NCBI RefSeq assembly: GCF_040359615.1
Contig: NZ_CP132942.1
Coordinates: 5,394,001 to 5,458,000, forward strand
Origin: Tunturibacter psychrotolerans
Lineage (GTDB): Bacteria > Acidobacteriota > Terriglobia > Terriglobales > Acidobacteriaceae
DNA: 64,000 nucleotides
Direction of reading: 5' to 3'
A model generated the notes under the pieces. The model worked only from the letters and a program-made list of their open reading frames with translations, had not been told where the DNA came from and did not search any database. Numbering within the stretch: the stretch's first letter is position 1; every line of letters starts with the position of its first letter. A program made the position numbers and the translations under genes. Shown here piece after piece: positions 19,284-45,741 of this stretch.

Positions 19284-19592
19284 CTATTTTTTGGGGTGGC
19301 TGGCGATGATCTGGTCCTTGATCTTGTTGTATGTGGCCTGCGGGAGAATGCCCCGGGTAACGAGCTGATTCTTAGCGGTGTAGGGGCGGCCGTCGATGAT
19401 TCGTTTCGAGTAGGCGTCGCCGATTCCGGGGAATGCCTTGAGTTGGTCGGGCGTTGCGGTATTGATGTCCAAGGGCGCTAAGGCTGCGGCAGCGGCGGGA
19501 GTCCCGGCTTTGGAGCCCTGAGCGGCGGAGAAGACGGGCGCGACCGCGAACAGGAGCGCAGTGGCGAGGAGTTTGTGGCGAAGATTTAGCAT
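19284..19592 (-). CDS. Exported ComEA-like helix-hairpin-helix protein
   Basis: 102 residues. The signal peptide MLNLRHKLLATALLFAVAPV is followed by a short Ala-rich linker and a helix-hairpin-helix domain: LDINTATPDQLKAFPGIGDA, then YSKRIIDGRPYTAKNQLVTR, GILPQATYNKIKDQI. This is the DNA-binding module of ComEA, which captures DNA during transformation. Many acidobacterial exported HhH proteins are, however, not linked to competence genes, and none is nearby. AGGAG lies nine bases before the ATG at 19592. Confidence 0.82.
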   Translation of the reverse strand: MLNLRHKLLATALLFAVAPVFSAAQGSKAGTPAAAAALAPLDINTATPDQLKAFPGIGDAYSKRIIDGRPYTAKNQLVTRGILPQATYNKIKDQIIASHPKK

Positions 19593-19714
19593 CGTGGGTC
19601 TCCTACTTTGGGCTGAATGCTTTACAGCGGAAGAGTACGAGAGTGTTTGGGCTGCGTCAATGAACAAGTTTGCGTTTGGTGGGCTGGAAGCGCGGGTGCC
19701 GAGTCTGGGTGAGG

Positions 19715-19743
19715 TTGACTTATGTAGGACTGACCGCTACCCT
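19715..19743 (+). promoter_or_regulatory. Possible promoter of the his operon
   Basis: TTGACT at 19715-19720 (one mismatch to the -35 consensus) and TACCCT at 19738-19743 with a 17-base spacer. The -10 match is weak, and a start near 19750 would leave almost no 5' leader before the leader-peptide ATG at 19753. An alternative is a -10 at TATGTA (19721-19726). The placement is uncertain. Confidence 0.3.
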
Positions 19744-19752
19744 GAAGGGGAG

Positions 19753-19836
19753 ATGAGCAGACTGCACCTCCATCATGGCCATTCGCATCATCACGCAAAG
19801 AGCGTGTTGGCGGGTGTGTCCGGAGTGGCGAAGTAA
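19753..19836 (+). CDS. hisL: Histidine operon leader peptide (attenuator)
   Basis: A 27-residue reading frame (ATG at 19753, TAA at 19834) containing HLHHGHSHHH, that is seven His codons at codons 5, 7, 8, 10, 12, 13 and 14. It ends 24 bases before a strong terminator hairpin, and hisI follows at 19921. This is the arrangement of his leader peptides in enterobacteria: when charged tRNA-His is scarce the ribosome stalls on the His codons and lets an antiterminator form. The purine-rich AAGGGGAG lies immediately upstream with short spacing. The peptide itself probably has no function beyond being translated. Nothing else would explain so many His codons just here. Confidence 0.85.
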   Translation: MSRLHLHHGHSHHHAKSVLAGVSGVAK

Positions 19837-19860
19837 CGACGCTTACTAAGGATTTCGAAA

Positions 19861-19896
19861 GGCCCGCTGACGCGCATACCGCGAGCGGGCCTTTTT
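19861..19896 (+). terminator. Attenuator terminator of the his operon
   Basis: GGCCCGCT (19861-19868) pairs perfectly with AGCGGGCC (19884-19891); after a two-base bulge an inner CGCG (19871-19874)/CGCG (19880-19883) helix adds four pairs. TTTTTC follows. A competing antiterminator can form between 19808-19815 and 19862-19869 (six canonical or G-U pairs around GCGGGT/GCCCGC, extended by two wobbles). The segment 19812-19818 can in turn pair with 19763-19769 inside the leader peptide, and CACGC/GCGTG (19792-19806) makes a small hairpin across the last His codon. Confidence 0.87.
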
Positions 19897-19920
19897 CTTG
19901 CGTACATGGGGAGGAGAGAG

Positions 19921-20262
19921 ATGATCGACGTAGTGAAGATTGATTTTGCGAAGATGGATGGTCTGGTTCCGGGAATCGTTCAGGATGCGAAGACTGGCGA
20001 GATGCTCATGCTCGGTTTTTTGAACGAAGCGAGCTATGCGAAGACGCTCGACAGCGGGTTTGTTACGTTCTGGAGCCGGACTCGGCAAAAGCTTTGGATG
20101 AAGGGCGAGACCAGCGGGAACCGGCTGAGAGTGATTGAAGCGTCGACCGATTGCGATAACGACGCGCTGCTATTCAAAGTTGAAGTCGAAGGTGACGGAT
20201 TGGTTTGCCACGAGGGCACAGTGAGCTGCTTTACGAAAAATATTGCGCTGGAGGCACGGTGA
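19921..20262 (+). CDS. hisI: Phosphoribosyl-AMP cyclohydrolase
   Basis: 113 residues; only the cyclohydrolase domain, with no fused HisE pyrophosphohydrolase, and no hisE in this window. It opens the purine ring of phosphoribosyl-AMP in step 3 of histidine synthesis. Signatures: [38 protein letters not shown], the DCDNDALLF metal site and the cysteines of CHEGTVSCF that bind zinc. The ATG at 19921 is preceded by GGGGAGGAGAG; an ATG at 19906 would lie inside this ribosome-binding site. It is the first gene after the attenuator, and its stop codon overlaps the hisG start by four bases. Confidence 0.95.
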
Positions 20263-21140
20263 GCGAGACGAATCGATTGAAGCTTGGAATACCGAAGGGC
20301 AGTTTGCAGGACGCGACGATTGCGCTGTTTGAGCGGGCCGGATGGAGGATCTTCGCGAATGGCAGGAGCTACTTCCCTTCTGTCGATGATGCAGAGATTG
20401 AATGCATGCTGGTGCGGGCGCAGGAGATGGCGCGGTATGTGGAGCATGGAGCGCTAGATGCTGGACTGACGGGCAATGATTGGGTGCTGGAGAACGAGAC
20501 CGATGTGGAGTATGTCACAAGTTTGACGTACTCGAAACAGAGCCGGCAGAAGGTGAAATGGGTGTTGGCGGTGCCGGAGGATTCGCCGTTCCAGAGGCCG
20601 GAGGACCTGGCGGGAAAGACTATTGCCACGGAATTGGTCGAGTTTACGAAGCGCTACTTTGCGGGAAAAAACATTCCAGTCACTGTGGAGTTTAGTTGGG
20701 GCGCGACTGAGGTAAAGCCGCCTATGCTGGCGGATGCGATTGTCGAGGTGACGGAGACGGGGTCGTCGCTGCGGGCGAATCGGCTGCGGATTATCGAGAC
20801 ACTGATGGAGAGCGAAACTCAGTTGATCGCGAATAAAAAAGCTTACCAAGACGCATGGAAACGGGAGAAGATCGAGAATATCTCGTTGATGCTGAATGCG
20901 GCGATTGCGGCGCAAGGACGAGTCGGACTAATGCTGAACGCAAGGAAAGTTGATCTGGATGTGATTATCGGCGTGCTGCCCGCGTTGAACTCGCCAACCG
21001 TATCGCAGTTGAGCGATCAGGAATGGGTGGCGCTGAATACGATTCTGGATGAGGCTCTGGTGCGCGAGGTGATTCCGAAGCTGAAGGCCGCGGGAGCTAC
21101 GGGGATTGTTGAGTATCCGTTGAGTAAGGTTGTGCTTTAG
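20259..21140 (+). CDS. hisG: ATP phosphoribosyltransferase, long form
   Basis: 293 residues, the HisG long form, which includes the C-terminal regulatory domain for feedback inhibition by histidine (last about 75 residues, ending [10 protein letters not shown]). It catalyses the first committed step, joining ATP and [24 protein letters not shown] opens the catalytic domain, with [10 protein letters not shown] and the PRPP-binding [14 protein letters not shown]. The start is a GTG at 20259 overlapping the hisI stop (GTGA), with GGAGG just upstream, showing translational coupling. No hisZ is needed for this form. The enzyme probably acts as a hexamer in the cytoplasm. Confidence 0.95.
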
Positions 21141-21175
21141 GAAGTTTGGTTTTGTTTCGGCAATGGAGTTTTGCG

Positions 21176-22435
21176 ATGAAGCTTGTAAAGACCTTTGGCC
21201 GCGGCAAAGCTGCGGCAGATGCATTGATCGAGTCGCTGGAAGGGCGAGGCGCTCTGAACACGGCGCGTGTTGAACCAGCGGTGCGAGGCATTCTTGCAGG
21301 AGTGCGAAAGGGCGGCGATCGAGCTCTACTGAAGTATGCAGCTGAGTTCGACGATCTCGCGAAAGGACAGGCGTTGCTCGTGTCGCGTGATGAGATGAAG
21401 TCTGCGTGGGATTCGACTGCGCCGGCGCTACAAGCTGCAATGATGGTGGCGCGAGGAAATATTCTTGCGTTCGCGGAAGCTCAGATGCCTCAGGAGTGGA
21501 CGATGTCACCCGTCGATGGAGTGAAGACGGGACAGATTGTGCGGCCCCTGGGGAGTGTTGGTTGTTATGTGCCGGGTGGACGGTATCCGCTGCCTTCGAC
21601 GCTATTGATGACGGTTACACCGGCGCAGGTGGCTGGGGTGGAACGGATTGTGGTGTGTTCGCCGAAGCCTGCAAAAGAGACGATGGCTGCAGCATGGCTG
21701 GCAGGAGTAACGGAGTTTTATCGGGTAGGCGGGGCGCAGGCGATTGCGGCAATGGCTTATGGCACGGCTATGATTGAGCGCGTCGATAAGATCGTCGGGC
21801 CGGGAAATCTCTACGTAACCGCAGCAAAGATGCTGGTTGCGAATGACTGCGGCATAGATATGCCTGCAGGTCCAACGGAGATCGTTGTGACCAGCGAAAC
21901 AGGGGATGCTGCTGGTATTGCGGCTGATTTGATTGCGCAGGCAGAGCATGATCCTGAGACGTTGGCTGTGCTCATTACGACTAAGGAAATCTTAGCGAGG
22001 GATGTTGCGGCAGAGGTGAAGTTGCGGGCGCGAGATAATGGGATTGCGAAGCAGTCGTTGGCAGCGCGAGGATGTGTATTTGTAACTGCGACTGTTCGCG
22101 AGGCGCGGGAGCTGACGAATCGGTTTGCGCCGGAGCATTTGACTGTCGATTCGGTGGCGGATCTGAAGTGGGTTCGAAATGCGGGATCGGTTTTTGTAGG
22201 GGAATACGCTCCGCAATCGATGGGAGATTACGTCTCTGGCCCGAACCATGTATTGCCAACTGGGCGCGTAGGACGGGTCCGTGGTGGATTGAGTGTGATG
22301 GATTTTGTAAAGGTGATTACTGTTCAGGAGTACACGCGTGCGGGATTGATGAAGATGGGTCCCTATGCGATTGCACTGGCTGAAGCTGAGGGCCTGAACG
22401 GACATGCAGAAAGCGTGAGAGTGAGAATGCAATGA
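21176..22435 (+). CDS. hisD: Histidinol dehydrogenase
   Basis: 419 residues. It oxidises histidinol to histidine in two NAD-dependent steps. Visible family blocks: GCYVPGGRYPLPSTLLMTVT, VVCSPKPAKETMAAAWLAGV, IVGPGNLYVTAAK, GIDMPAGPTEIVV, LIAQAEHDPE, and FAPEHLTVD with the catalytic Glu-His pair, then SGPNHVLPTGR. A zinc site is expected. The start at ATG 21176 has TGGAG eight bases upstream and lies 35 bases after hisG. Its stop codon overlaps the hisC start (ATGA). Confidence 0.95.
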   Translation: MKLVKTFGRGKAAADALIESLEGRGALNTARVEPAVRGILAGVRKGGDRALLKYAAEFDDLAKGQALLVSRDEMKSAWDSTAPALQAAMMVARGNILAFAEAQMPQEWTMSPVDGVKTGQIVRPLGSVGCYVPGGRYPLPSTLLMTVTPAQVAGVERIVVCSPKPAKETMAAAWLAGVTEFYRVGGAQAIAAMAYGTAMIERVDKIVGPGNLYVTAAKMLVANDCGIDMPAGPTEIVVTSETGDAAGIAADLIAQAEHDPETLAVLITTKEILARDVAAEVKLRARDNGIAKQSLAARGCVFVTATVREARELTNRFAPEHLTVDSVADLKWVRNAGSVFVGEYAPQSMGDYVSGPNHVLPTGRVGRVRGGLSVMDFVKVITVQEYTRAGLMKMGPYAIALAEAEGLNGHAESVRVRMQ

Positions 22436-23586
22436 GTATTGCCACTAATCCTGTTACAGAAGTGAAATCAGTACGAGCGCGCAAGGCTGTTCAGGAGATG
22501 CCGGAGTACCATCCGCCGCTGGCGGGACGGGATGCTTTGCGTCTGGACTTCAACGAGAACACGTTTGCGCCTTCTCCGCGGGTCATGGAGAGGTTGTTTG
22601 CACAGACAGGTGAGAGACTCACGAAGTATCCCGAGAGGGAGCCTGTGGAACGGATCGTTGCAGCCCACTTTGGGTTGAAGCCAGAGGAGGTGCTGCTGAC
22701 TAACGGCGTCGATGAGGCGATTCATCTGATGTGTGTGGCGTTCCTCGAGGCGGAGGATGAGGCCTTGATTGCGACCCCCACATTTTTCATGTACGACGTA
22801 AGCATCCAGATGATGACCCCGCACCTGAGGAAGGTGCAGTCCGATTCCACGCTGGGGTTTCCTTTCGAGCGTTTTATGGCGGCGATTACGGAGCGAACGA
22901 AGCTGATCATTGTAGCTTCACCCAATAATCCGACGGGTGCGGTGGTGAGCAGAGACCATTTGTTGGCGATTGCGGCGACTGCGCCACAGGCGGTGCTGAT
23001 GGTTGATGAGGCTTACTACCATTTTGATGGGGAGTCGGTCATGAACGATCTGGCGACTCTGCCGAACGTGATTGTGGCACGAACGTTCTCGAAGGCTTAT
23101 GGGCTGGCGAGTCTGCGGATCGGCATGCTGGCGGGCAATGCAGAGCTGTTGAAGTATGTGCGGAAGGTTAGCTCGCCGTACAACGTGAATGGGGTGGCGC
23201 TGGATTGCCTTTCGGCTGCGATAGAGGACGAGACCTACCTGGCATGGTATGTGGAACAGGTGAGAGTTGGCCGTGAGCGGATGATGGGTGGATTGGCCGA
23301 GTTGGGCGTGCCGTATTTCCCTAGCCACGCGAACTTTGTGCTGATGAATATTGGGCCAAAGCACAAAGAACTTGTGCAGGCGATGCGAGCACGCGGCGTA
23401 TTGCTCCGAGACCGGTCTACCGATCCGGGTTGCGATGGATTTGTGCGCATCACGATTGGGGTGGAGGAGCATGTAACACGAGGATTGGACGCACTCAAGA
23501 TATGTCTCGATGAGATCGGCTGGAAGAGCCGACGTGAAGAATCAGCGCATGATCCAATCGAGGACGGGGTCAGGGAGTTCGAGTGA
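22432..23586 (+). CDS. hisC: Histidinol-phosphate aminotransferase
   Basis: 384 residues, a fold-type I PLP enzyme. It transfers an amino group from glutamate to imidazole-acetol phosphate. [20 protein letters not shown] at the N-terminus is the typical HisC opening; [12 protein letters not shown] and [11 protein letters not shown] follow; the PLP lysine lies in [16 protein letters not shown] and [10 protein letters not shown] lies near the end. The N-terminal 20 residues and the C-terminal 25 are less conserved. It overlaps hisD by four bases and hisB by one base (TGATG), consistent with tight translational coupling. Confidence 0.95.
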
Positions 23587-24185
23587 TGTCTAAGAGTGTG
23601 AGAACCGCAACGATCAAACGGAATACTACGGAGACGCAGATATCTTTGAAGCTCGTTGTCGATGGACAGGGCGTGTACAAAGTGTCGACGGGGATTCGCT
23701 TTTTTGATCATATGCTGGAGCTGTTTGCGCGCCATGGGGGATTCGATCTAACGCTGAAGTGTTCGGGTGATCTGGATGTCGATCAGCACCATACCGTGGA
23801 AGATGTGGGAATCGCTCTAGGCGAGGCGTTCGGCAAAGCGCTGGGCGATAAGAAAGGAATTATGCGCGCCGGATACTTTGTGATGGCGATGGATGAGACG
23901 CTCGCCGTGGCTGCGGTGGATCTAAGCGGCCGCGTCTCCTATGTCGTCGATGACAAGGTGAAGGTACGATTGGTGGGAGATTTTCAGAGTGAGTTGCTCG
24001 CTGATTTCTTCGATGGCTTTGCGCGCGGGGCCAAGGCGAACGTGCATGTGAAGACGATGTATGGACGGAGTAATCATCACAAGATCGAGGCGATCTTCAA
24101 GGCGTTTGCGCGGGCTCTGCGCGGGGCTTGTTCGCGGGACGAGCGAATGAGGGAGATGCTACCGAGTACCAAGGGATTGCTTTAG
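23586..24185 (+). CDS. hisB: Imidazoleglycerol-phosphate dehydratase
   Basis: 199 residues, the monofunctional dehydratase without a histidinol-phosphatase domain. Manganese-binding motifs are plain: [33 protein letters not shown] and [16 protein letters not shown]. It converts imidazole-glycerol phosphate to imidazole-acetol phosphate. The ATG at 23586 shares a base with the hisC stop; a GTG one codon earlier is also possible. Because it lacks a phosphatase domain, histidinol-phosphate phosphatase must be encoded elsewhere; no hisN or PHP-type hisJ is seen in the window. Confidence 0.95.
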
Positions 24186-24229
24186 CTGAAATTTCTTCTT
24201 CGTCTGCGTGGGATAGTAAGGCTGCTTGA

Positions 24230-24841
24230 ATGATTGCGATCATCGACTACAAAGCGGGGAACCTGACCAGCGTTGTGAAGACGCTGAACTACCTTGGCGC
24301 GCGGGAGATGGTGGTGACTCAGGACCCTGCGGTGGTGGCGGGAGCGGCAAAGGTAGTGTTGCCTGGTGTTGGACATTTTCAGGCTACTTCTTTGCTGCTA
24401 GAGCTTGGGTTGACGGATGCGGTGCGTGAGAGTGTTGCGAAGGGCGCGTGGTTTCTCGGGATCTGTGTTGGATTGCAGTGGCTGTTTGAGGGTTCGACTG
24501 AGGCTCCAGGTATGGCTGGGCTGGGCCACTTCAAGGGGGCATGTGAGCGATTCCCTTCTCTGTTTGACGGCGCGGAGTTGAAGTCGCCGCATGTTGGATG
24601 GAATTCGTTGGAGAGAATACGGATGGATTCGAGGTTGATGCGCGGGGTGGAGAGTGGCGGGTATGTTTACTACACTCATTCCTGGCGAGCCCCGGTCATA
24701 CATGCAACAGCGGCGGTTACAGAATATGGCGAAGCGTTTACGGGAGCGGTCGAGAAAGACAATGTGATGGGGGTGCAGTTTCACCCGGAGAAGTCGAGCG
24801 TGGTGGGATTACAGGTTTTGAAGAACTTTTTGGAGTTGTAG
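24230..24841 (+). CDS. hisH: Imidazole glycerol phosphate synthase, glutamine amidotransferase subunit
   Basis: 203 residues, class I glutamine amidotransferase. It releases ammonia from glutamine for use by HisF. The catalytic Cys is in FLGICVGLQWLFEGS and the His-Glu pair in VQFHPEKSSVVG; the oxyanion region is VVLPGVGHFQATS. The ATG at 24230 is 44 bases after hisB, the largest gap inside the operon, with AAGG about ten bases upstream. Three bases separate its stop from the lipoyl-like gene that lies between it and hisF. Confidence 0.95.
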   Translation: MIAIIDYKAGNLTSVVKTLNYLGAREMVVTQDPAVVAGAAKVVLPGVGHFQATSLLLELGLTDAVRESVAKGAWFLGICVGLQWLFEGSTEAPGMAGLGHFKGACERFPSLFDGAELKSPHVGWNSLERIRMDSRLMRGVESGGYVYYTHSWRAPVIHATAAVTEYGEAFTGAVEKDNVMGVQFHPEKSSVVGLQVLKNFLEL

Positions 24842-24844
24842 ATC

Positions 24845-25126
24845 ATGCCATTTATGTATGAGTTGAAACTTGCAGCGGAAGAGCCTTCGTATACGTTTGT
24901 TCAGCGGCTGGTGCCTGCTGGATCGCTGGTGGGAACGGGGCAGGCGGTTTGTACCTTGACGGATGGGGAGATGGAGTTTCATGTGCTTGCCCCGAGGCAG
25001 GGTTTGGTGGTTGAGTGGTTTGTGGAGCATGGCGCGGTGATCGAGAATGGGGACTCGCTGGCTCGGATTGTGTGTGAGGGTGAGCAGGTTGCGGTGGCTG
25101 ACGCGGTTCCGCAGAGGTTGGGTTAG
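24845..25126 (+). CDS. Small biotinyl/lipoyl-like domain protein inside the his operon
   Basis: 93 residues forming a single biotinyl/lipoyl-like beta-barrel: YTFVQRLVPAGSLVGTGQAV, CTLTDGEMEFHVLAPRQGLV, and VEWFVEHGAVIENGDSLARI. The hairpin that carries the modified Lys in carboxyl-carrier and E2 proteins (usually A-M-K-M) reads DGEMEF here, with Glu where Lys is expected, so covalent biotin or lipoate is unlikely. It has only 3-base gaps to hisH and hisF and must be cotranscribed with both. Function is unknown. A structural or regulatory role with the HisF-HisH complex, or a repurposed carrier domain, is a guess from position only. Confidence 0.75.
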   Translation: MPFMYELKLAAEEPSYTFVQRLVPAGSLVGTGQAVCTLTDGEMEFHVLAPRQGLVVEWFVEHGAVIENGDSLARIVCEGEQVAVADAVPQRLG

Positions 25127-25129
25127 TCG

Positions 25130-25903
25130 ATGCTGACCAAGCGGATCATCGCGTGTCTCGATGTACGCGACGGGCGCGTGGTGAAGGGCGTGCAGTTCGT
25201 GGACATCGTCGATGCAGGTGATCCGGCGGAGTTGGCGCATCGTCATGCGGCTGCGGGGGCGGATGAGATTGTGCTGCTGGATATTACTGCTACGCATGAG
25301 GGGCGCGGGACGCTGCTTGAGACGGTGAAGCGGACGGCTGCGGCGCTGTTTGTGCCGTTTACGGTTGGAGGCGGAATTCGGAGTGCGAAGGACGCTGCTG
25401 CGGTGTTCGATGCGGGCGCGGATAAGGTGAGTGTCAACTCGTCGGCGATCGCGCGGCCGGAGCTGATTGGCGAGATTGGTGGGAGCTTTGGAGCGCAGGC
25501 GGTGATTGTGGCGATCGATGCTCGTCGTGTTGAAGGACGAGGCGTTGAGGAGGCTGAAGTTTTTGTGAGTGGTGGTCGGAAGGCTACGGGGCGGCGGGTT
25601 TTGGATTGGGCTCGTGAGGCGGAGGAGCGAGGGGCCGGGGAGATTTTGCTGACTTCGATGGATACCGATGGGATGCGGGGTGGGTTTGATTGTGAGTTGA
25701 CCGCGATGGTGAGTGGGGCGGTGCAGATTCCGGTGATCGCTTCGGGTGGGGCTGGAACTGCGGGGCACTTTGTTGAGGTGTTTGGAAGGGGTAGGGCGGA
25801 TGCTGCGCTTGCGGCTAGTATCTTTCACTTTGGGGTGACGGACTCGCGGGAGTTGAAGGGGGAGTTGCAGCGGGCTGGAGTTGCGGTTCGGCTTCCCTGC
25901 TAG
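25130..25903 (+). CDS. hisF: Imidazole glycerol phosphate synthase, cyclase subunit
   Basis: 257 residues, a (beta/alpha)8 barrel. It uses ammonia delivered by HisH to make imidazole-glycerol phosphate and AICAR. Catalytic Asp residues are in [18 protein letters not shown] and VIVAIDARR; phosphate-binding sites in FTVGGGIRS and [22 protein letters not shown] is the family's late motif. The segment after AIDARR ([20 protein letters not shown]) is as in other acidobacterial or proteobacterial forms. It is the last gene of the + strand his operon and converges on hisA, with a repeat element (25919-26016) between. Confidence 0.95.
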
Positions 25904-43083: not shown

Positions 43084-44631
43084 ATGGCAGTTGAGAAGTT
43101 TGTAGGGACGCCGAAGAAGGCTACGACGCACACGAATCAGAACGAAGATTTGATGTTTGAAAAATCTTCGCCTGGAAAGAAGGCTTATCGGCTGGCGCAG
43201 CTGGATGTGCCGTCGGTTGATTCGGTTGCGCTGCTGGGGGACTCCGTGCGGACGGATCTGGGCGTGATGCCGGAGCTGAGTGAGATTGAGATCATTCGGC
43301 ACTTCACGCGGCTTTCGACGTGGAACTATGCGATTGATCTGGGGATGTATCCGCTGGGGAGCTGCACGATGAAGTACAACCCTCGCGTGAATGAGGCGGT
43401 GGCGCGGCTGGAAGGGATCGCAGAGGCGCATCCTTATCAGCCGGAGTCGTTGTCGCAGGGGTGCCTGGGGATTATGCAGACGCTGTCCGACGCGCTGATT
43501 GAGATTACGGGCATGGATGCGATTACCCTGCAGCCAGCGGCGGGCGCGCATGGCGAGTTTACAGGGATCCTGTTGGTTCGGGCTTATCACGAGAGCAAAG
43601 GCAATCCACGGAAAAAGATTTTGATTCCGGATTCGGCGCATGGGACCAATCCTGCGACTGCTGCTGTGTGCGGATATGAGGTTGCCAATCTGAAGTCGAA
43701 TGCTCAGGGCATGGTGGATGTGGCTGAGCTGGAGCGGATGGTCGATGAAGATACCGCCGCGCTGATGCTTACGAATCCTTCGACCATCGGTGTGTTCGAG
43801 AGCGAGATTCACAAGATCGCAGATATTTTGCATGCGAAGGGCGCGCTGCTTTACATGGATGGCGCGAATATGAATGCACTGGTAGGCAAGACGCGGCCGG
43901 GCGATTTCGGCGTGGACGTGATGCATTTGAACCTGCATAAGACGTTTTCTACTCCGCATGGTGGGGGTGGTCCGGGGTCGGGGCCGGTGGCTTGCAAGAA
44001 GATTCTGGAGCCGTTTCTCCCTACGCCGATTGTGGTAACGAAGTCTGATGGAAAGCTGGGGTTGGAGTACAACCGACCACAAACCGTGGGCCGCGTGCGG
44101 ATCTTCTATGGCAACTTTGGAATGTTTGTGCGGGCGCTGGCTTATATTCTCGCGAATGGGCCGGATGGATTGCGGCAGACGACTGAGGATGCTGTGCTGA
44201 ATGCGAATTACATTCGCGCGAAGCTTGAGGGCACGTTTGATCTACCGTACAAAACCCAGTCGCTGCATGAGGTTGTGTTTTCGGACAAGCTGCAGGCTAA
44301 GAACGGCGTGAAGACGGGCGATATGGGCAAGCGATTGATCGACTATGGCTTCCATGCGTATACCGTCTCGTTCCCGCTGGTGGTGCAGGGCGCGATGATG
44401 ATTGAGCCGACCGAGAGCGAGAGCCGTGAGGAGCTTGACCTGCTGATCGATGCGCTGAAGCAGATAGCGCGGGAGGCGGAGGAGAATCCTGAGCTGGTGC
44501 AGACGTCGCCGCATACGACGCGGGTGCAGAGGCTGGATGAAACTACTGCGGCCAGGAAGCCGATTCTTCGTTGGAGGGCTCCTGTGGCGCCGGAGCCGGT
44601 GCTGGTCGATACGGCCGCGAAGGAGTGGTAG
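43084..44631 (+). CDS. gcvPB: Glycine dehydrogenase (decarboxylating) subunit 2
   Basis: 515 residues, the C-terminal, PLP-binding half of glycine decarboxylase. It has SPGKKAYRLAQLDVP, YPLGSCTMKYNPRVNE, LQPAAGAHGEFTGILLVRAY and, before the cofactor lysine, DVMHLNLHKTFSTPHGGGGP (Lys of HKTFS). It catalyses the glycine-binding and decarboxylation step with GcvPA and passes the aminomethyl group to GcvH. The PLP lysine and glycine-rich loop are intact. One base separates its stop from the GTG start of the next small gene. Confidence 0.96.
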   Translation: MAVEKFVGTPKKATTHTNQNEDLMFEKSSPGKKAYRLAQLDVPSVDSVALLGDSVRTDLGVMPELSEIEIIRHFTRLSTWNYAIDLGMYPLGSCTMKYNPRVNEAVARLEGIAEAHPYQPESLSQGCLGIMQTLSDALIEITGMDAITLQPAAGAHGEFTGILLVRAYHESKGNPRKKILIPDSAHGTNPATAAVCGYEVANLKSNAQGMVDVAELERMVDEDTAALMLTNPSTIGVFESEIHKIADILHAKGALLYMDGANMNALVGKTRPGDFGVDVMHLNLHKTFSTPHGGGGPGSGPVACKKILEPFLPTPIVVTKSDGKLGLEYNRPQTVGRVRIFYGNFGMFVRALAYILANGPDGLRQTTEDAVLNANYIRAKLEGTFDLPYKTQSLHEVVFSDKLQAKNGVKTGDMGKRLIDYGFHAYTVSFPLVVQGAMMIEPTESESREELDLLIDALKQIAREAEENPELVQTSPHTTRVQRLDETTAARKPILRWRAPVAPEPVLVDTAAKEW

Positions 44632-45664: not shown

Positions 45665-45741
45665 GCGCCCGTAGCTCAGCTGGATAGAGCGGCAGCCTCC
45701 GAAGCTGTAGGTCAGAAGTTCGAATCTTCTCGGGCGCACCA
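45665..45741 (+). tRNA. tRNA-Arg (anticodon CCG)
   Basis: A 77-base cloverleaf including an encoded CCA end. Acceptor GCGCCCG pairs with CGGGCGC; the D arm has GCTC/GAGC with AGCTGGATA; the anticodon stem is GCAGC/GCTGT with loop CTCCGAA, giving anticodon CCG (reads CGG, Arg); the T arm is AGAAG-TTCGAAT-CTTCT. Variable loop AGGTC. All stems are intact. Confidence 0.97.

What the first reader, a model, noticed from the sequence alone, without database searches (positions are those of the whole stretch)
19753..19921. Complete histidine-operon attenuator in an acidobacterium-like genome
A 27-codon leader with seven His codons within ten (HLHHGHSHHH) is followed by a 12-pair terminator with a T-run just upstream of hisI. 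The leader region 19763-19769 can pair with 19812-19818; 19808-19815 can pair with 19862-19869, the left arm of the terminator (19861-19868). A ribosome stalled on the last His codons would cover up to about 19807 and leave the antiterminator strand free; a ribosome that reaches the stop codon (19834) would cover it. This is a full ribosome-mediated switch, best known from Gammaproteobacteria, and no his leader of this kind is familiar to me from Acidobacteriota.
Basis: partly seen in the sequence, partly recalled or inferred. Interest (0 to 1): 0.85.

Follow-up and report, generated by a model that had tools for sequence, protein, structure and literature searches.

The report
Acidobacterial histidine operon attenuator
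A short, histidine-rich coding sequence and an RNA switch in front of the histidine-making genes of a soil acidobacterium probably let a stalling ribosome turn those genes on when histidine runs low; similar leaders recur in many of its relatives.

Summary
A 27-codon ORF (MSRLHLHHGHSHHHAKSVLAGVSGVAK, 19753-19836) precedes an intrinsic terminator (19859-19899) and hisI of a his operon. All 80 named relatives fetched (the best 80 of 253 matches) carry a His leader before hisI, as do 91 of 102 loci from other families of the class and 8 of 10 hisI-hisG loci from other acidobacterial classes. Antiterminator (19802-19815 with 19862-19875) and terminator both show compensatory changes. The switch strand lies in different reading frames in different families, so there selection is on the RNA rather than on the peptide. 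A promoter sits so close to the ATG that the leader mRNA is probably almost leaderless. Best reading: classical ribosome-mediated attenuation. Rfam, Pfam and NCBIfam do not recognise it, and nine searches of the held papers showed no description for Acidobacteriota. Response to histidine, transcription start and translation are inferred. Folding alone reproduces the switch at equilibrium in only 68 of 193 loci, the window among them.

The parts
19715..19743 (+). predicted promoter: -35 TTGACT (19715-19720), 17-nt spacer, -10 TACCCT (19738-19743, only 3 of 6 consensus bases); the -10 ends 9 nt before the leader ATG, predicted transcription start about 19750
   Evidence: promoter-like pair (8 or more of 12) upstream in 178 of 199 leaders against 25.4 (sd 5.0) in shuffles; start not mapped; tool scan with stricter cut-offs found none
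19753..19836 (+). leader ORF, MSRLHLHHGHSHHHAKSVLAGVSGVAK, His codons within 19765-19794
   Evidence: His leader in 110 of 110 hisI loci
19792..19806 (+). conserved hairpin P1 (CACGC-AAAGA-GCGTG): 5' arm starts with the last His codon, 3' arm is the start of the antiterminator strand
   Evidence: 209 of 210 cells paired, C-G to G-C swap in 19 of 42 rows
19802..19815 (+). antiterminator strand (GCGTGTTGGCGGGT, inside codons 17-21)
   Evidence: (12 of its 14 pairs counted)
19862..19875 (+). partner of the antiterminator strand (GCCCGCTGACGCGC), overlapping the left half of the terminator
19859..19899 (+). intrinsic terminator: stem 19859-19893, T run 19892-19899
19921..20262 (+). hisI, phosphoribosyl-AMP cyclohydrolase, first gene of the operon (in-frame ATG also at 19906)
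20259..25903 (+). rest of the presumed operon: hisG, hisD, hisC, hisB, hisH, a small biotinyl/lipoyl-like ORF (24845-25126), hisF
   Evidence: co-transcription inferred from spacing

Best explanation
A ribosome-mediated transcription attenuator of the his operon. Transcription starts a few bases before the leader ATG (inferred), so a ribosome loads at or near the 5' end without a Shine-Dalgarno site (inferred). When His-tRNA is short the ribosome stalls in the His run; it then holds open hairpin P1, whose 5' arm starts with the last His codon, and frees strand 19802-19815. That strand pairs with 19862-19875 as soon as it is transcribed, which takes away the left half of the terminator, and RNA polymerase reads on into hisI. 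When His-tRNA is plentiful the ribosome runs to the stop codon at 19834; it then stands between the two strands, the terminator forms and transcription ends at about 19899. Shown by sequence and comparison: the ORF, the His codons, the terminator, the alternative helices and their covariation. Inferred: stalling, the switch itself, the start site, and the response to histidine.
For: His leader before hisI in 110 of 110 loci (80 named genomes, the best 80 of 253 matches, plus the own genome and 29 unnamed relatives; the two sets overlap in part). In 120 class loci (L111-L230) 109 have four or more His in ten codons of a short ORF; 18 of the 120 are from family f1 and may repeat genomes already counted, the other families give 91 of 102. 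Only His behaves so: 179 of 201 loci have an ATG ORF with at least five His in ten codons, the next residue, Arg, 10 of 201. Terminator (-10 kcal/mol or better plus T-rich tail) in 193 of 199 distinct leaders. Antiterminator: 91.5% of 481 cells paired against 31-45% when slid; covariation score 0.223 against 0.162 shuffled, 0 of 500 shuffles as high. Terminator: 82.2% of 585 cells paired against 30-54% slid; G-C/A-U and U-A/C-G swaps. P1: 209 of 210 cells paired, 29 cells changed on both sides. The longest leader:terminator duplex averages 8.75 bp with the own terminator, 7.80 (sd 0.10, highest of 200 draws 8.04) with another of the same family, 7.20 between families, 6.19 after shuffling (189 loci). 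Where that helix has at least 7 contiguous pairs around GCGG/CCGC, the GCGG begins at codon position 1 in 26 of 26 f1 combinations but at position 3 in 7 of 7 (f5), 4 of 4 (f8) and 2 of 2 (f2): the RNA, not the peptide, is kept. Equilibrium fold of the window: terminator probability 0.99 without ribosome, 0.28 and 0.27 with a ribosome on His codons 12 and 13, 0.99 with one on the stop codon. In its own genome RNA model R1 has one strong hit, this one (E 1.1e-28; next 0.18).
Against: No RNA or expression data. The equilibrium calculation shows the switch (terminator probability below 0.5 at some His codon) in only 68 of 193 loci, and in the window not at His codons 5, 7, 8, 10 or 14. In a snapshot before the right arm is made, the antiterminator forms without any ribosome in 128 of 193 loci, the window included, so P1 does not by itself keep the terminator on when nothing is translated. 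No leader before hisI in families f4, f9, f10 and f75 (0 of 7 loci) and below my threshold in 3 of 25 f5 and 1 of 28 f6 loci; in one f4 locus (L115) hisI is first, though only 263 nt of upstream sequence are held. L239 and L240 (f29) have hisI next to hisG without a leader. Leader-to-terminator pairing is weak in f2 (mean z -0.56), and of 193 loci 39 lack the GCGG/CCGC anchor and f7 has no helix of 7 or more at it. Some measures do not exceed shuffles: pairs with a change on both sides (52 of 500 shuffles as high for the antiterminator, 205 for the terminator, 71 for P1).
Confidence: 0.92

Rival explanations
1. The ORF makes a functional His-rich micropeptide (for instance metal-binding) and the terminator merely ends its short transcript.
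For: His-rich peptides bind metals (general knowledge); the C-terminal residues look conserved inside groups of family f1; the same genome has another small ORF ending in a His run and followed by a terminator-like stem, away from the his operon.
Against: The C-terminal conservation is explained by the RNA strand, which lies in other frames in other families; outside f1 the His codons and the RNA pairings are what is kept; in the positive class loci it lies upstream of hisI; RNA model R1 has only one strong hit in the genome.
Confidence: 0.03
2. The leader works by ribosome stalling but mainly controls translation or mRNA stability of hisI, not termination.
For: Some attenuators hide a ribosome binding site instead of terminating (stated in PMC9413887, passage); hisI has its own purine-rich site just before 19921.
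Against: A stem with a T-rich tail in 193 of 199 leaders; in the window the paired strands lie 5' of the purine-rich site of hisI.
Confidence: 0.04
3. A T-box or other tRNA- or ligand-binding riboswitch controls the operon.
For: T-boxes control his genes in other phyla (PMC9413887, passages).
Against: At gathering score the window matches only a tRNA gene at 45665 and 16 relatives match nothing; at E up to 10 around hisI there is no T-box among the four hits; the conserved region is taken up by the ORF and the helices.
Confidence: 0.01

Closest known systems
his operon leader of Enterobacteriaceae and other Gammaproteobacteria (Rfam RF00514 His_leader)
   Same: His-codon run in a short ORF, alternative helices, intrinsic terminator, in front of the his operon
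   Different: No Rfam match; leader ORF predicted almost at the 5' end; antiterminator strand pairs directly with the terminator arm and one small hairpin, P1, competes (the multi-hairpin layout of the enterobacterial leader is recalled, not compared here)
His leader attenuators of Firmicutes (PMC2965389; PMC9413887; passages seen)
   Same: His-rich leader peptide plus terminator and antiterminator, predicted by comparison
   Different: Other phylum; there reported for bacilli and for three lineages, here in 8 of the 12 class families sampled before hisI and in other classes
Leaderless leader peptides of Actinobacteria (leuL, trpL, ilvL in Streptomyces lividans, PMC8079986) and trpL of Sinorhizobium meliloti (PMC7298713); passages seen
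   Same: Leader ORF begins at or near the transcription start
   Different: Other amino acids; there the start comes from RNA data, here from the promoter sequence only

Membership tests
Ribosome-mediated amino-acid attenuator (general kind) | Short ORF with a run of codons for the amino acid made by the downstream genes | tested here: met
Ribosome-mediated amino-acid attenuator (general kind) | Intrinsic terminator between leader and first gene | tested here: met
   the tool's stricter scan does not list it
Ribosome-mediated amino-acid attenuator (general kind) | Antiterminator exclusive with the terminator, conserved with compensatory changes | tested here: met
   weak in family f2
Ribosome-mediated amino-acid attenuator (general kind) | Structure that ties up the antiterminator strand and is opened by a ribosome on the regulatory codons | tested here: inconclusive
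   hairpin P1 conserved in 42 sequences of family f1; elsewhere only single-sequence folds (0.70 against 0.58 shuffled over all 189 loci); without a ribosome the antiterminator still forms in 128 of 193 snapshots
Ribosome-mediated amino-acid attenuator (general kind) | Leader translated; read-through depends on charged tRNA | not testable with these tools
   no expression data
Rfam RF00514 His_leader | Match to the covariance model | tested here: not met
   19400-20400, E up to 10; gathering
Leader peptide families of Pfam and NCBIfam | Match of the leader peptide to a profile | tested here: not met
   Searches (E up to 10; E up to 1): no family; profiles are weak for 27 residues
T-box | Match to a T-box covariance model | tested here: not met
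Leaderless leader gene | Transcription start at or within a few bases of the ATG | tested here: inconclusive
   promoter spacing says so; start not mapped

The most novel reading that the evidence does not exclude
A phylum-wide, near-leaderless family of his attenuators, not recognised by RF00514, in which one conserved switch strand has been kept while the leader's reading frame over it changed between families, and in which the first ribosome loads at the 5' end of the nascent RNA without a Shine-Dalgarno site.
Probability: 0.6. Interest if true: 0.65.

Novelty: new member of a known kind. Interest (0 to 1): 0.52.

Why it matters
[quoted passage not shown] This gives one, at operon level, in several classes of that phylum, and points to translation-coupled attenuation of the classical type there. 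If the leader really is near-leaderless, it is a natural system in which initiation at the 5' end is timed against RNA polymerase. It also supplies an alignment from which an RNA family could be made, and an example of RNA selection overriding peptide sequence inside a probably translated ORF.

Tried and rejected

The tool's own scan of 19400-20400 found no promoter and no terminator. It asks for at least 4 of 6 bases in each promoter hexamer (TACCCT has 3) and for a stem with a loop of 3-8 bases directly before the T run (this stem is interrupted). My own finders are laxer and were checked against relatives and, for the promoter, against shuffles.

A reverse-strand control for the terminator (107 of 199) is uninformative or unfavourable as it stands: a GC stem between an A run and a T run is terminator-like on both strands. 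I ran no shuffled control for the terminator finder.

The first permutation test of the antiterminator (4.64 against 3.97) did not re-select the register for swapped partners; one search does and replaces it. One search anchored 154 of 193 loci; 39 were left out of its counts, and loci with identical strand pairs were merged to 91.

In the snapshots the value 0 for a ribosome on the stop codon follows from how I cut the RNA and is not evidence.

RNA model R1 in 199 genomes of the phylum: 60 have a match at E 0.1 or better; the 20 listed f1 genomes have best E of 2.0e-9 or better, the best outside f1 is 9.9e-7. Of the 20 stretches fetched (12 at model hits, 8 upstream of hisG hits), 10 show a short ORF with four or more His in ten codons and 10 do not (L277, L278, L282, L283, L285, L286, L291-L294).

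The His-codon pattern occurs at one other place of the genome; it is the His-rich end of a small ORF, not a his leader. The Trp-rich ORF at 43700 overlaps a 515-aa ORF on the same strand.

Full report
What is there. The + strand holds ATG 19753, a 27-codon ORF MSRLHLHHGHSHHHAKSVLAGVSGVAK, stop 19834-19836, a terminator 19859-19899 and hisI, taken to start at 19921 (in-frame ATG also at 19906). The genes that follow are hisI-hisG-hisD-hisC-hisB-hisH-(biotinyl/lipoyl-like ORF)-hisF by family models. A hisA-like gene lies on the opposite strand after them (best NCBIfam match TIGR00007, E 5.3e-41, 140.7 bits, below its cut-off of 228.95). The genome is close to Edaphobacter lichenicola: hisI is 96% identical to that of strain X5P2.

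Is the leader conserved? One search gave 30 hisI loci (own genome and 29 unnamed relatives) and one search gave 80 loci of named genomes, the best 80 of 253 matches. All 110 have a short ORF with at least five His in ten codons within 500 nt before hisI; the two sets overlap in part. A further 120 loci (L111-L230) come from the same class: 109 of 120 have at least four His in ten codons. By family: f1 18 of 18 (possibly genomes already counted), f2 10 of 10, f3 1 of 1, f5 22 of 25, f6 27 of 28, f7 23 of 23, f8 7 of 7, f11 1 of 1; f4 0 of 4, f9 0 of 1, f10 0 of 1, f75 0 of 1. In the loci L128 (f10), L129 (f4) and L130 (f9) hisI is not the first his gene; in L115 (f4) it is, but the contig holds only 263 nt before it. 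In other classes of the phylum, 8 of 10 loci with hisI next to hisG (L231-L240) have a His ORF followed by a terminator-like stem; L239 and L240 do not. Of the 10 other hisG loci (L241-L250), L247 and L250 have a His ORF plus terminator-like stem before hisG, L246 has a His ORF without a clear stem, and seven have none (stems judged by eye; L245 holds only 314 nt). Of the 20 stretches, 10 have such an ORF: L276, L280 and L290 directly before hisG or hisI with a terminator-like stem; L275 and L279 more than 1 kb before a hisG hit; L287, L288 and L289 before distant hisG hits, without a clear stem in L287; L281 and L284 with no his gene seen. Because in each locus I picked the ORF with most His, the fair control is other residues: at least five of one residue in ten codons occurs for His in 179 of 201 loci, for Arg in 10, Ala in 5, Ser in 4 and any other in 2 or fewer.

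The terminator. Of 199 distinct leaders 193 have a simple hairpin of -10 kcal/mol or better followed by a T-rich tail within 150 nt of the leader stop. Not found in L114, L118, L158, L182, L225 and L226; L114 has a stem and T run by eye, so the finder misses some.

The switch. In alignment A1 (the window and 41 of the 63 representatives listed) 12 antiterminator pairs (19802-19813 with 19864-19875) are formed in 91.5% of 481 cells, against 30.6-44.5% when the partner is slid by 1-3 columns; 28 cells changed on both sides, and none of 500 shuffles reached the covariation score. The outer three pairs hold only in about half of the rows. The main swap is U-A to C-G between Edaphobacter-Granulicella-type leaders (GTGTTGGCGG with CCGCTRACGC) and Terracidiphilus-type leaders (ATGCCGGCGG with CCGCCGGC). 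The number of pairs changed on both sides (4) was reached by 52 of 500 shuffles, so the support comes from cells and score. The terminator shows G-C/A-U (19 rows) and U-A/C-G (15 rows) swaps in its outer helix (91.7% paired); its inner helix of four pairs holds in 58.2%. RNAalifold draws a hairpin straight after the His run; its five pairs 19792-19796/19802-19806 are formed in 209 of 210 cells, with a C-G to G-C swap in 19 rows. This hairpin P1 starts with the last His codon and ends in the antiterminator strand, so it is the natural sensor. Over all families the longest helix between leader and own terminator beats swaps within the family (8.75 against 7.80, sd 0.10, 200 draws). By shuffling, the pairing is strong in f5 and f8 (mean z -3.15 and -3.18), moderate in f1 (-2.0), f6 (-1.88), f7 (-1.65) and the other-class set (-1.56), and weak in f2 (-0.56); 58% of 193 loci have an empirical p of 0.05 or less.

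RNA, not peptide. Over all anchored loci the GCGG of the switch strand begins at codon position 1 in 92 of 94 f1 leaders and at position 3 in 8 of 13 f5, 11 of 15 f6, 11 of 14 f7, 6 of 6 f8, 4 of 8 f2 and 2 of 4 other-class leaders. In f6 and f7 the anchored helix is often short, so the clean comparison is among distinct strand pairs with at least 7 contiguous pairs: position 1 in 26 of 26 (f1); position 3 in 7 of 7 (f5), 4 of 4 (f8), 2 of 2 (f2), 3 of 5 (f6) and 2 of 3 (other classes); none in f7. The conserved C-terminal words (SVLAAVSG, MPADCHGL, VCQR) are thus largely one RNA strand read in different frames. The His codons mix CAT (742) and CAC (590), that is, the residue is kept and not the letters.

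Near-leaderless. A sigma-70-like hexamer pair (8 or more of 12 matches) lies upstream in 178 of 199 leaders, against 25.4 (sd 5.0) in shuffles; its -10 ends 8 or 9 nt before the ATG in 111 and 6-16 nt before it in 173. It is found in all 97 f1, 23 f7 and 7 f8 leaders but in only 15 of 28 f6, 5 of 8 other-class and 0 of 1 f3 leaders. A start 7 nt after the -10 box gives a 5' UTR of about 3 nt in the window. Pentamers AGGAG, GGAGG, GAGGT or AAGGA stand at -18 to -4 in only 4 of 199; the window has GGGGAG directly before its ATG, too close to be a normal site and mostly upstream of the predicted start. A genome survey gives 9.7-19.4% leaderless genes in three Acidobacteria by the same kind of signal (PMC3160421, passages).

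How it works. With equilibrium folding of the window the terminator has probability 0.99 without a ribosome, 0.28 and 0.27 with a ribosome on His codons 12 and 13, and 0.99 with one on the stop codon; on His codons 5, 7, 8, 10 and 14 it stays at 0.92-0.99. In 68 of 193 loci some His codon brings it below 0.5. In the other 125 the switch, if real, must be kinetic: before the right terminator arm is made, the antiterminator is the favoured fold with a ribosome on some His codon in 192 of 193 loci, but also without a ribosome in 128 of 193. So the sequences support the two end states well and say less about the untranslated state. The footprint used (free RNA from 13 nt after the first base of the A-site codon) is a textbook value from memory.

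Uniqueness and names. Covariance model R1 finds one strong place in the own genome (E 1.1e-28, next 0.18). Rfam at gathering score gives only a tRNA at 45665 in the window and nothing in 16 relatives; near hisI at E up to 10 His_leader is absent, and a Thr_leader hit (E 1.8, 17.5 bits against a gathering score of 55) is at chance level. The leader peptide matches no Pfam or NCBIfam family.

Literature. Nine searches of the held open library listed no paper whose title, abstract start or inspected passages describe a his leader in Acidobacteriota; three listed papers that hold the words (PMC11611912, PMC7160235, PMC8355165) I did not open. PMC2965389 (passages) says that almost no predicted attenuator in Acidobacteria has a function and reports His leaders in bacilli; PMC9413887 (passages) reports them in three Firmicutes lineages, none of the RF00514 type; PMC1262725 (passages) found no RNA element for his in Actinobacteria; PMC4833913 (passages) counts leader genes, Acidobacteria included, and cites a search for His leaders in Actinobacteria. 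Leaderless leader peptides are described in Streptomyces (PMC8079986, passages) and for trpL of Sinorhizobium meliloti (PMC7298713, passages); PMC3896937 (passages) excludes a His leader in Corynebacterium glutamicum. Most subscription papers are not held, so the claim of novelty is limited to this library.

Verdict.

Noticed in passing
window 24845-25126 (+): A 93-aa biotinyl/lipoyl-attachment-like ORF sits between hisH and hisF (Biotin_lipoyl E 3.4e-07). Its role in a his operon is unclear.
   Followed up: no
L295 1368-1533 (own genome C1 near 3340366): A small ORF with a signal-peptide-like start (by eye) ends in a His run (STYHHHRHHHHHHHS) and is followed by a terminator-like stem; it lies away from the his operon.
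   Followed up: partly
L107 leader and other Terracidiphilus-type leaders: A small hairpin (GGCC...GGCC) spans the leader stop codon in these relatives (fold, alignment); the window lacks it. It could affect ribosome release.
   Followed up: no
window 19859-19899: The terminator stem is flanked by A and T runs and may also work for transcripts from the opposite strand; RNA model R1 gives a weak reverse-strand hit there (E 0.74).
   Followed up: no
L128, L129, L130: In these loci of families f10, f4 and f9 hisI comes late in the his gene order and no His leader was found; regulation there is open.
   Followed up: partly
L281 962-1003 (-): A short His-rich ORF (VDHHHRRRHPHHG) with a hairpin behind it, at a weak RNA model hit where no his gene was seen.
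   Followed up: no
window 45665-45738 (+): A tRNA gene (Rfam).
   Followed up: no
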